Below, in pieces: positions 12,865 through 26,386 of a DNA stretch of 33,513 nucleotides. The stretch's first letter is position 1, and the number at the start of each line of letters is the position of its first letter. The notes under the pieces were generated by a model. That model did not search any database. It had not been told where the DNA came from and saw only the letters and a program-made list of their open reading frames with translations. The translations under genes were made by a program, and so were the position numbers. The DNA is from an uncultured Hyphomicrobiales bacterium (lineage in GTDB: Bacteria > Pseudomonadota > Alphaproteobacteria > Rhizobiales > Xanthobacteraceae). Location: the NCBI GenBank assembly GCA_903892675.1, contig CAITJJ010000208.1, forward strand, positions 1-33,513, read 5' to 3'.

Positions 12865-13110
12865 CTAGATCTTGTCCTTGACCGAGGTGTCGGGGCGATC
12901 GCTGCCGCGCGCGGTCTCGGTGTGCCAGCGGCCTTTTTCATCCTCGAACTGGATTTCCTCGGTGTGCCCGGGAACCCGCTGCTCGGCGGCGGCGCGCTGC
13001 GCGGCTTTCAGCGCCGCCGCGTGCGACGGAAAAGGTTCGGAGAAAACGCCATCGACCTTGTACGCCCAGCCGCCGTCGTGCTCGACAATTTCATAAGTAA
13101 CCTTGGACAT
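12865..13110 (-). CDS. DUF2188-like small protein
   Basis: YEIVEHDGGWAYKVDGVFSEPFPSHAAALKAAQRAAAEQ. Confidence 0.65.
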   Translation of the reverse strand: MSKVTYEIVEHDGGWAYKVDGVFSEPFPSHAAALKAAQRAAAEQRVPGHTEEIQFEDEKGRWHTETARGSDRPDTSVKDKI

Positions 13111-20221: not shown

Positions 20222-20605
20222 TCAGCGGGCAGGGACGGCGGCAACGCACTCGATCTCGATCAGCATTTTCGGATCGGGCAACTGCGCGATGACGCAGGTG
20301 GTGCGCGCCGGATAAGGCGGTGGGCCGAAGGCGTCGGCATAGAGCGCGTTCATTGGCGCGACATCGGCCGCGCGCGTTAGCAATACGTTGACCTTGACGA
20401 GATGCGCGGTGTCGGTGCCGGCCTCGGCGAGGATGCGCTTGATGGTGGCGGCGACAAAGCCGAACTGCGTGGCGAAATCATCCGACAGTTTGCCGTCGCC
20501 GTCGAAGCCCGGAATGCCGGAGACGAACAACAGATCGCCGACCCGCGTGGCGTAGGACAGCGGTGGGGCTTTGATGGCGGGGGGTGGAGGGAAGTGGGTG
20601 ATCAT
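20222..20605 (-). CDS. RidA/YjgF/YER057c family protein
   Basis: PLSYATRVGDLLFVSGIPGFDGDGKLSDDFATQFGFVAATIKRILAEAGTDTAHLVKVNVLLT...YPARTTCVIAQLPDPKMLIEIECVA. Confidence 0.92.
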   Translation of the reverse strand: MITHFPPPPAIKAPPLSYATRVGDLLFVSGIPGFDGDGKLSDDFATQFGFVAATIKRILAEAGTDTAHLVKVNVLLTRAADVAPMNALYADAFGPPPYPARTTCVIAQLPDPKMLIEIECVAAVPAR

Positions 20606-20819
20606 AGGGGGATTGCTCCGGGGCGGACGGCAGGGTGGGCGAAGCGAGGCGATCCCAGCATAACCTATCGCGGCGCTGTGATTGGATCGGTCGGCTTTAA
20701 GCGCGTTCGACGCCTTGCCGCCATCACTCCTGTAACCCCATGATCTTTAATAGGAATAAAAGCTTGACTGCGAAGTCGTTGCATGATAGGAATATATACT
20801 ATTTCTCAATGGAGCGGCC

Positions 20820-21704: not shown

Positions 21705-22305
21705 CGCCTTCGATGAGGACGAGAACCTCGGAGCGAAACTTAGGCGGATCGTCGAGGAATGTTGCCAAAGCGGCGCCATTCGACTGCAGCCTTCTTCTCC
21801 ATTCGAGGTTCTCGGTCGGCCAATGCGCCAGCCGATCGAATGACTGTCGCGCTGCGGGCATATCGCCGGCAAGCGCGGCGGCGACCGCGGCATGATAGAC
21901 CGGCGCGCCTTCGCGTAAGGGGTGGCTAATGAGATAGCGGTGAATCGCGCCTATCGATTTGAATTGTTCGCGGAGCGCGATAACCTCCTGCGCGGCCCGC
22001 TCGGCCATGCGCTCGATCAGCGGCGTAAATTGCCCAACACTTTCGAACGAGATGAAGTCGGCATCATCGACGCGATGCCCGACATCGAAACTCCAGCTCT
22101 TTTTCGGGTACCAGAACCACATCGCACCGACGTTGAGATAGCTTCCCTTCGACCAGCCGCTCGGCTGGAATTCGATGGAGATGGCCCAGAAGCGTTGATC
22201 GGAATACCAGAACCGGGATTGGCCCTTGCGAACGCAGCCAAGCGGCGTCAACGCGGCCTTCGCCGCCGCTGCGATGAGCTTGCCGTGTTCGTTTTGCTTG
22301 GCCAT
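21634..22305 (-). CDS. DUF4304-like protein, candidate immunity protein
   Basis: MAKQNEHGKLIAAAAKAALTPLGCVRKGQSRFWYSDQRFWAISIEFQPSGWSKGSYLNVGAMWFWYPKKSWSFDVG; convergent with and overlapping the 3' end of the preceding ORF by about 71 nt. Confidence 0.55.
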   Translation of the reverse strand: MAKQNEHGKLIAAAAKAALTPLGCVRKGQSRFWYSDQRFWAISIEFQPSGWSKGSYLNVGAMWFWYPKKSWSFDVGHRVDDADFISFESVGQFTPLIERMAERAAQEVIALREQFKSIGAIHRYLISHPLREGAPVYHAAVAAALAGDMPAARQSFDRLAHWPTENLEWRRRLQSNGAALATFLDDPPKFRSEVLVLIEGVRERLRLPPDPQCLEAMDSTGAT

Positions 22306-22480
22306 CCCCGCGCCCACATACCGGCATGACTCTAGCACGGACGCACGGAAGACGGACTAGCGGGCAAATTTTCCGTCGAAACCCGGAATGCCGGAGACGA
22401 AGAGAAGATCGCCGACGCGCGTGGCGTAGGAGAGGGGTGGGCTTTGATGTTCGGGGGCGGTGGGAAGTGGGTGATCATGG
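22276..22480 (-). repeat. Duplicated junction unit 1: RidA 5' fragment, spacer, and 5' end of the DUF4304-like gene
   Basis: Shares long stretches with 22933-23135, including cggaatgccggagacgaa, cgcgtggcgtagga and gatgttcgggggcgg. Confidence 0.85.
22369..22478 (-). pseudogene. Truncated and frameshifted RidA N-terminal fragment
   Basis: Reverse complement MITHFPPPPNIKA then a 1-nt deletion relative to the intact gene; later ...RVGDLLFVSGIPGFDGKFAR-stop. Confidence 0.8.
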
Positions 22481-22732
22481 GGGGCCTTTTGATTGGGGCA
22501 GCGGCGTGTGGCCCGCATGAAGCGAAGCGGAATGCGGGACCGTTAGTGGGCGACTGACCCGGATTTCGCGGAGCCGGCTTTCATTCCGTTCTCCTGGTAG
22601 GTAATGTACATCACGCACGTGATCGGGCAGAATACGAAGTACTAAAACGCGACGTCGGTCTGCACGTGCGCCGCGTTATTCGGATGACACGATTGGGCGG
22701 TTAACCTCCGCCCGTCCAAACAGGAGCTTGTT

Positions 22733-22932: not shown

Positions 22933-23135
22933 GAGCTTGCCGTGGTCGTTTTGTTTGGCCATCCCGGCGCCCGCGTGCCGAAGCCATCCTAGCACGGACG
23001 CGCGGAGGGCGGACTAGCCGGCTTGCCTGTCAACGCCCGGAATGCCGGAGACGAACAGGAGATCTCCAACGCGCGTGGCGTAGGACAGCGGCGGGGCTTT
23101 GATGTTCGGGGGCGGAGGGAAGTGGGTGATCATGG
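22933..23135 (-). repeat. Duplicated junction unit 2
   Basis: Counterpart of 22276-22480; contains MAKQNDHGKL start codons (22963 leftward) and a RidA N-terminal fragment. Confidence 0.85.
23014..23133 (-). pseudogene. Truncated RidA N-terminal fragment (in frame, about 39 codons)
   Basis: MITHFPPPPNIKAPPLSYATRVGDLLFVSGIPGVDRQAG-stop, colinear with the RidA N-terminus at 20605. Confidence 0.8.
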
Positions 23136-23240
23136 TGGGCTGTGACATAAATTGAAACAAGGGAGAAATCGCCGTTGTCATTTGATCAGCAGGCGGAATT
23201 CGTAAATAGGCTGCTTCCGCTTCACTAGTCGTCATGCCGC

Positions 23241-23843
23241 CTAAACAATGCTGCCTTTCTTCGCAATCCAAACCTTAATAATATTTACAAAGTCATTGTA
23301 AAGAATGCGACGCGTTGTAATTCCTGACTCTATGCATATGCGAGGGAATTGTCGCAAAAGCCTTTTGTAATCCTGGGTGATCGGAACGTCGCCGGGTAGC
23401 AGCGTGTGAGAATTGAATTGAGCCAACCAGTTTCTAACGACCAGAATTACCTCTTCAAAACTATTCTGGTGAATTTGAATGTCTTGGCCCGCAATATCGG
23501 ATGTTCGTTGATAACGGTAGGATACAGCGTCCAATACTAGGCAGGTTTTTGATGAGTGGGATCGGCCACCAAATTTCTTTGCTCCGACGAAAATTCCTAA
23601 TTCAAAAGGCATGTTAAATCGTGGCAATCCGCTGCTTAATTGCGTCCTCGAAATGTCATGTATTGCATGACTACACGAACCCATAATATCCATAATCTTG
23701 TCGAGGCGATTTTGGCTCCCATCCGCAACTTCTAGTGAGCAACGTGGCTCAAATCCACAATACACCAGCGTGAAGACGATGGCCCTGAATTTTCTCTGAT
23801 ATTGTGCGTCAAACGGGCAATTAATAAATACTGCGCTCGCCAT
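23241..23843 (-). CDS. TIR / nucleoside-deoxyribosyltransferase-like accessory protein, candidate defence effector
   Basis: ASAVFINCPFDAQYQRKFRAIVFTLVYCGFEPRCSLE...RLDKIMDIMGSCSHAIHDISR...LPRFNMPFELGIFVGAKKFGG; NMPFELG resembles the acidic-residue motif of that fold; low GC. Confidence 0.5.
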   Translation of the reverse strand: MASAVFINCPFDAQYQRKFRAIVFTLVYCGFEPRCSLEVADGSQNRLDKIMDIMGSCSHAIHDISRTQLSSGLPRFNMPFELGIFVGAKKFGGRSHSSKTCLVLDAVSYRYQRTSDIAGQDIQIHQNSFEEVILVVRNWLAQFNSHTLLPGDVPITQDYKRLLRQFPRICIESGITTRRILYNDFVNIIKVWIAKKGSIV

Positions 23844-23853
23844 GTCTCACCGA

Positions 23854-24178
23854 TTAAATGGCTTTAAATATCCTCTCAGGGGAGATCGTTCCGCGCTTTG
23901 GCTTTAGAGAGAATTTTCGAACAGTCTTTGCCTGCTTGGGGTGGTCCAGCTTGAATTTTGAAATTAGCTGACCATTCACTTTGCTCGTGACTACGAAATA
24001 GGTTCCCTGATTGCTCTTAACCACATCGTAATTGCGAGTTTTTCTTGTGGCTTCCGCGGCCCGGCCGACGACGTTGGATGTCTTTGCCTTCTTAAAGCCC
24101 GACTTGGCTGTTTTCCATTTGCTATTGGGCACGACTAAGTAGCTGCCGTGACTAGAGACTTTTTTTTACCTTCTTCAT
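23854..24178 (-). CDS. Small basic protein (possibly DUF2188-like); apparent true start upstream, separated by a homopolymer frameshift
   Basis: Track ORF 23854-24132; in-frame coding-like sequence KVSSHGSYLVV continues upstream to an 8-T run (24160-24167), beyond which lies ATGAAGAAGGTA (24178). Confidence 0.5.

Positions 24179-24230: not shown

Positions 24231-26386
<2,156 letters not shown>

What the first reader, a model, noticed from the sequence alone, without database searches (positions are those of the whole stretch)
23241..24178. Low-GC two-gene operon with a TIR/deoxyribosyltransferase-like protein
The genes are separated by only 10 nt on the minus strand, sit between RidA fragments and thiC, and are visibly AT-richer than the surroundings (23641-23700 is 24/60 G+C). 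The downstream product has FINCPFD...Y, CSHAIHDISR and RFNMPFELGIFVGAK motifs. I read these as a TIR/NDT-like (NAD- or nucleotide-cleaving) fold, a common type of abortive-infection effector. The small basic partner (weakly DUF2188-like) could be a regulator or sensor. The defence role is inference.
Basis: partly seen in the sequence, partly recalled or inferred. Interest (0 to 1): 0.7.

Follow-up and report, generated by a model that had tools for sequence, protein, structure and literature searches.

The report
Divergent TIR-like effector with tag-bearing partner
Two small neighbouring genes encode a distant relative of bacterial immune enzymes that typically destroy the cell fuel NAD+, plus a small companion protein; across hundreds of bacteria this enzyme family, which no library searched here has named, usually sits beside a companion carrying the same short conserved peptide joined to varying sensor-like parts, which suggests a mix-and-match anti-virus switch.

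Summary
The two genes are real. The 200-aa protein (23241-23843, minus) belongs to a widespread family with no model above cut-off in Pfam, NCBIfam, PADLOC or PHROGs. AlphaFold2 gives a confident alpha/beta fold (pLDDT 92, pTM 0.90) matching SPARTA TIR domains, NDTs and DNPH1. Profile comparison places it nearest the CAP12/Pycsar TIR domain, with E81 of NMPFELG, invariant in 85 members, on the TIR catalytic-glutamate position. So the TIR/NDT reading holds, more exactly CAP12-like TIR; NADase activity is inferred. The family is patchy (0 of 43 congeners, 7 of 385 genomes in the class) and lies on plasmids, one Tn7-like element and viral contigs. New here: 89 of 112 loci have an adjacent small gene carrying a conserved ~28-aa tag (74), DUF2188 (23) or both. 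The tag occurs alone or fused to DUF2188, a GIY-YIG-like domain, a CD-NTase, probably a sigma factor and, away from the effector, a ThsB TIR. The window's partner ends in a shortened, weak match to it. Best explanation: a TIR-type immune effector coupled by a tag peptide to exchangeable sensors. Defence-island enrichment and tag docking were not shown.

The parts
23241..23843 (-). TIR-like effector gene (200 aa): TIR core to about residue 143 plus a C-terminal extension with two long helices (152-172, 182-198)
23595..23615 (-). NMPFELG motif; E81 codon at 23601-23603, invariant in 85/85 members, aligned with the catalytic-position Glu of CAP12-type TIR
23846..23851 (-). Shine-Dalgarno-like GGTGAG before the effector ATG
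   Evidence: read
23854..24132 (-). partner ORF (GTG start, 92 aa, basic), 10 nt upstream of the effector
23857..23901 (-). C-terminal PKRGTISPERIFKAI of the partner: shortened match to the conserved partner tag (6.2-7.2 bits in models not trained on it; 9 of 13,873 distant ORFs score as high)
24133..24178 (-). upstream leader: ATG at 24178 with GGAG, eight-A run at 24160-24167, out of frame with the partner ORF
23029..23139 (-). truncated RidA 5' copy that borders the cassette on its downstream side (87% identical to 20501-20611)
24231..26228 (-). thiC, bordering housekeeping gene (present in 42 of 44 genomes of the genus)

Best explanation
The two genes are an accessory immune (abortive-infection type) module. 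The downstream gene encodes a divergent TIR enzyme of the CAP12/Pycsar-TIR kind that, when activated, hydrolyses NAD+ or a related nucleotide through E81. The upstream gene encodes its small partner. Across the family the partner has two functional parts: a short tag peptide that most likely docks on the effector or keeps it in check, and a variable part (basic tail, DUF2188, GIY-YIG-like domain, CD-NTase, probably a sigma factor and others) that senses or relays the trigger. In this genome the partner is of the short basic type. Shown: the ORFs, family, predicted fold, conserved Glu, co-occurrence of tag and effector, modular fusions, patchy distribution. Inferred: NADase activity, docking, sensing, phage defence.
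For: TIR-type fold: AF2 pLDDT 92 and pTM 0.90; Foldseek top hits include SPARTA TIR-APAZ, NDT, DNPH1, TIR-STING and a viral CAP12-TIR protein; 36 of 85 members weakly match Pfam CAP12-PCTIR_TIR, best 8e-4; hhalign 54.6%, E 1.2e-4, against at most 1.2% for NDT, TIR_2, DUF4062 and reversed controls, while the accepted CAP12 versus TIR_2 relation scores 32.4%; E81, N77, R75, D63, N8, C9 and P10 invariant in 85/85. Partner: 89 of 112 loci carry a tag and/or DUF2188 gene directly adjacent; 74 of 248 adjacent ORFs against 13 of 19,513 others pass the tag threshold (the final model was trained on adjacent ORFs). In 21 whole genomes of about 117 Mb, 32 of 40 tag hits lie within about 500 nt of an effector copy or remnant. 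Tag fusions: CD-NTase (DncV-like 3e-10; solved cGAMP synthase 9woo 2e-67) as a two-gene unit with the effector; ThsB TIR (7e-23) beside AbiU2 and HsdS; DUF2188; GIY-YIG-like; sigma-70 (weaker tag). A distant member overlaps a double-TIR gene behind an Mrr-type nuclease gene. Mobility: plasmids, Tn7-like cargo near AbiEi/AbiEii, a copy 3 nt before a restriction endonuclease gene; absent from 43 congeners, 7 of 385 genomes in the class.
Against: No activity is tested. Defence enrichment was not shown: PADLOC family matches were 88 (near), 81 (far) and 173 (random stretches of related genomes), a crude and redundant count. The window's own tag match is short and not found by a whole-genome search of its own genome. 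The CD-NTase and sigma-factor fusions are single cases, and L075 did not pass the tag threshold. AF2 of a natural partner-effector read-through gave low confidence at the tag (pLDDT 41-76), so docking is unsupported. About a fifth of loci have no recognised partner.
Confidence: 0.5

Rival explanations
1. Classical toxin-antitoxin pair: the basic partner is an antitoxin that binds and blocks a NAD- or nucleotide-cleaving toxin; the module stabilises replicons rather than sensing phage.
For: Tight two-gene order with a short basic first gene and gaps or overlaps of a few nt; presence on plasmids; degraded effector copies in several genomes.
Against: The partner is swapped for whole enzymes (CD-NTase, unknown 597-aa protein) and lies downstream in Poribacteria; antitoxins are seldom so variable around a constant peptide.
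Confidence: 0.22
2. A signalling or metabolic nucleotide enzyme of the NDT/DNPH1 type (base exchange or nucleotide sanitation) rather than an immune NADase.
For: Foldseek hits to NDT and DNPH1 nearly as good as TIR.
Against: Profile comparison with NDT finds nothing while CAP12-TIR is found; patchy, mobile distribution is unlike housekeeping metabolism.
Confidence: 0.13
3. A catalytically inactive TIR-like nucleotide-binding sensor whose partner (DUF2188, GIY-YIG-like, CD-NTase, basic tail) is the effector arm.
For: The varied fused modules include enzymes (CD-NTase) that could act by themselves.
Against: E81 and surrounding residues are invariant in 85/85, as expected for an active site; most partners are short non-enzymatic peptides.
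Confidence: 0.1

Closest known systems
CAP12/Pycsar effector TIR domain (PF10137; TIR-STING, Cap12, PycTIR)
   Same: predicted fold; hhalign 54.6%, E 1.2e-4; Glu of RFNMPFELG on the Glu of RQNVILELG
   Different: below Pfam's cut-off; no STING, SAVED or cyclic-nucleotide-binding domain, but a C-terminal helical extension and a separate tag-bearing partner; invariant N-terminal FxNCPFD-type motif
SPARTA TIR-APAZ
   Same: best structural hit in the PDB (TMq 0.56, E 1.4e-4)
   Different: no APAZ domain, no short pAgo gene next to it; about 14% identity
DUF4062 / Swarozyc TIR-like NADases (PMC13174449)
   Same: another TIR-like family outside classical Pfam TIR models with a conserved Glu
   Different: hhalign 1.2%; different size and domain partners
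Effector-associated domains (EADs) of Kaur et al. 2020 (PMC7159879) and the 2021 follow-up (PMC8195603)
   Same: principle: a small non-catalytic module couples constant effectors to exchangeable sensors or signalling proteins
   Different: here a peptide of about 28 residues, so far on the partner only, with no second copy seen on the effector; the EADs are small domains thought to pair homotypically
DUF2188 (PF09954)
   Same: partner in one well-supported clade of the family (13 of 13 rows, 100/96 support)
   Different: no function known; the window's partner does not match it significantly

Membership tests
TIR-fold superfamily, CAP12/Pycsar type (PF10137) | TIR fold | tested here: met
   AF2 model and Foldseek; NDT and DNPH1 folds score similarly
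TIR-fold superfamily, CAP12/Pycsar type (PF10137) | score above Pfam gathering cut-off | tested here: not met
   12.3 bits against 24.7 for the window protein; best member E 8e-4
TIR-fold superfamily, CAP12/Pycsar type (PF10137) | catalytic glutamate in the NxxFELG-type motif | tested here: met
   E81 aligned and invariant
TIR-fold superfamily, CAP12/Pycsar type (PF10137) | NADase activity | not testable with these tools
   needs enzyme assay
TIR-fold superfamily, CAP12/Pycsar type (PF10137) | fused STING, SAVED or cyclic-nucleotide-binding sensor | tested here: not met
   200-210 aa proteins with only a helical extension
Nucleoside 2-deoxyribosyltransferase (PF05014) | sequence profile similarity | tested here: not met
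   hhalign probability 0.25% with a three-row NDT alignment; no Pfam match
Known defence system component (PADLOC 2.0.0) | matches a curated model | tested here: not met
Known defence system component (PADLOC 2.0.0) | enrichment next to defence genes | tested here: inconclusive
   single striking cases
CBASS (type I-like) | CD-NTase next to the effector | tested here: not met
   not in the window; met in one related locus, L011
DUF2188 partner | PF09954 match in the window partner | tested here: not met
Tag-bearing partner (defined here) | 28-aa tag in a gene adjacent to the effector | tested here: inconclusive
   window: 6.2-7.2 bits over 15 residues, reached by 9 of 13,873 background ORFs; strong in many relatives

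The most novel reading that the evidence does not exclude
The ~28-residue tag is a portable recruitment peptide: bacteria attach it to different sensors or regulators (CD-NTase, sigma factor, DUF2188, GIY-YIG-like, even a ThsB TIR) so that one constant CAP12-like TIR effector, and occasionally other effectors such as HEPN RNases, can be wired to many triggers. It would be a short-peptide counterpart of the EAD adaptor principle.
Probability: 0.35. Interest if true: 0.78.

Novelty: new variant of a known kind. Interest (0 to 1): 0.62.

Why it matters
A widespread effector family with at least hundreds of members in many phyla is missing from the four family libraries searched. Its partner shows one constant peptide joined to very different modules, which makes a testable proposal of how bacteria could re-wire one toxic TIR enzyme to many infection signals. 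It also gives DUF2188, a domain without known function, a specific context.

Tried and rejected
Family libraries on the single protein: nothing above cut-off. DUF2188 in the window's partner: rejected, 2-4 bits. NDT membership: rejected by profile comparison. PF10137 in 58 genomes of the class: none found. Defence-neighbourhood count with PADLOC: near 88, far 81, random 173 family matches; no enrichment, and the statistic is poor because one protein matches many models. Empty site beside thiC in congeners: not resolved; RidA is not next to thiC within 1.5 kb in the loci compared, so the flanking order itself is not conserved. Docking by AF2 on a natural in-frame read-through of partner and effector (L040, stop codon read as Gly): tag not ordered. 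A first such alignment with partner-only rows was discarded because those rows were misaligned. Tag search in the window's own genome: window tag not recovered at E 10. Phage records: no relatives. Paper searches for DUF2188 with relevant context or for the NMPFELG motif: nothing relevant.

Full report
Observation. Both ORFs are present as described: 23241-23843 and 23854-24132 on the minus strand, 10 nt apart, 44-46% G+C in a 60-66% G+C neighbourhood, between thiC and truncated copies of the RidA 5' end. Slippage, a true frameshift or an assembly error are all possible; otherwise the GTG at 24132, without a visible ribosome site, is the start.

Family. No library names the 200-aa protein. In an even sample of the class 7 of 385 genomes have it. 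In the tree rows of different phyla are mixed, and the copies in the same taxonomic family as the window's genome (L002-L004) fall in the DUF2188-linked clade, away from the window's copy, which sits on a long, weakly placed branch. This is the pattern of an accessory, horizontally moved gene.

Fold and active site. With 85 relatives AlphaFold2 gives pLDDT 92 and pTM 0.90. Foldseek's best PDB hits are SPARTA TIR-APAZ chains, with a cyanobacterial response regulator in between, then NDT, TIR-STING and DNPH1; the best viral model is a CAP12-TIR protein. Profile comparison separates the options: CAP12-TIR 54.6% (E 1.2e-4), DUF4062 1.2%, NDT 0.25%, TIR_2 0.2%, reversed CAP12 0.4%; the accepted CAP12-TIR_2 relation gives 32.4% with the same alignments. 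The alignment runs from VFINCPFD to RFNMPFELGIFVG and puts E81 on the Glu of RQNVILELG. E81, R75, N77, M78, D63, R46, N8, C9, P10 and S115 are invariant in 85 of 85. That CAP12-type Glu is catalytic is established knowledge of TIR NADases, not tested here.

Partner. In most loci a small gene is adjacent. An iterated profile finds a conserved peptide, consensus RTIKxPPKRGxxxxxxIxxAVxxVxxxR. Of 112 loci, 74 have an adjacent ORF with this tag, 23 one with DUF2188, 8 both, 89 at least one; at the same threshold 13 of 19,513 non-adjacent ORFs pass (the final model was trained on adjacent ORFs, so the figure is optimistic). The tag is usually near the C-terminus of an upstream gene; in Poribacteria it is near the N-terminus of a downstream gene. 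Over 21 genomes 40 tag hits have E <= 1e-3; by their coordinates 32 lie within about 500 nt of an effector or effector remnant (the model contains tags from some of these genomes).

Modularity. The tag is fused to DUF2188, to a GIY-YIG-like domain (L050, L054, L069, L079), to a CD-NTase (L011: DncV-like NTase 3e-10, solved cGAMP synthase 2e-67) forming a two-gene unit with the effector, and to an unknown protein of about 600 aa (L005, L033; a shorter 418-aa version in L015). L075 has a weaker tag-like stretch before a sigma-70 protein. Of the eight tags without effector, one is fused to a ThsB TIR beside HsdS and AbiU2, one lies next to a HEPN RNase and a ParA-like ATPase with an Eco57I-type enzyme nearby, one between an Eco57I-type enzyme and a DprA-like gene, one near another Eco57I-type enzyme and one near a NACHT NTPase. 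A sixth lies beside a ParA-like ATPase. These genomes are rich in defence genes, so this is suggestive only. A distant family member overlaps a double-TIR gene that follows an Mrr-type nuclease gene.

The window's partner. Its last 15 residues PKRGTISPERIFKAI match the tag core, at 6.2 bits in a model that did not include it; 9 of 13,873 distant ORFs do as well. Position and gene order make it likely the same element, shortened, but the match alone is weak, and a search of its own genome did not recover it. DUF2188 similarity is not significant.

Context. Plasmid copies have a small gene directly upstream; one is cargo of a Tn7-like element near AbiEi/AbiEii and a RES-domain gene, one precedes a restriction endonuclease gene by 3 nt. 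A general enrichment test with PADLOC was negative or uninformative.

Mechanism. Most likely a TIR-type effector with a cognate partner that controls it, the tag being the constant contact and the rest of the partner the variable input. A read-through AF2 model did not show ordered docking, so this step is inference from co-occurrence. The nearest published principle is the EAD adaptor system (PMC7159879, PMC8195603); another recent TIR-like family outside classical models is DUF4062/Swarozyc (PMC13174449). I found no paper describing this family, but the held library omits most subscription journals.

Noticed in passing
window 20222-20605, 22375-22485, 23029-23139, 22276-22365, 22933-23022: The 5' end of RidA is present three times (one intact gene, two truncated copies at 70% and 87%), together with a 90-bp repeat: a stretch of repeated partial duplications next to the cassette.
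   Followed up: partly
window 24160-24178: ATG with GGAG is separated from the partner frame by an eight-A run; possible slippage, frameshift or assembly error.
   Followed up: partly
window 12865-13110: 81-aa ORF on the minus strand that reads like a DUF2188 protein (MSKVTYEIVEHDGGWAYKVDG...), unrelated in position to the cassette.
   Followed up: no
L011:9917-11902: Two-gene unit of the TIR-like effector and a tag-CD-NTase fusion in a Poribacteria MAG, CBASS-like without other genes.
   Followed up: partly
L242:3166-3774: Tag fused to a ThsB-type TIR beside HEPN_AbiU2 and type I RM specificity genes; a DUF4062 protein lies about 3 kb away.
   Followed up: partly
L169:240-3334: Operon of Mrr-type nuclease, protein with PCTIR plus TIR_2 domains, and a distant member of this family.
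   Followed up: partly
L005:10609-12402, L033:10605-12410, L015:10605-11861: Tag-bearing proteins of 597, 601 and 418 aa; the two that were scanned (L005, L015) have no Pfam match, and L005 no PDB match either.
   Followed up: no
L067, L072, L085 partners: Several partners carry repeats resembling SAAGSALSQ and others a GRxAxTGRFV motif before the tag.
   Followed up: no
G000:C190:1-1161: A second, partial thiC (71% identical) lies on another contig of the same genome assembly.
   Followed up: no
L131:11971-12605: In Sphingomonas sp. NIC1 the effector gene is split into two ORFs, while a close relative on another Sphingomonas plasmid is intact.
   Followed up: no
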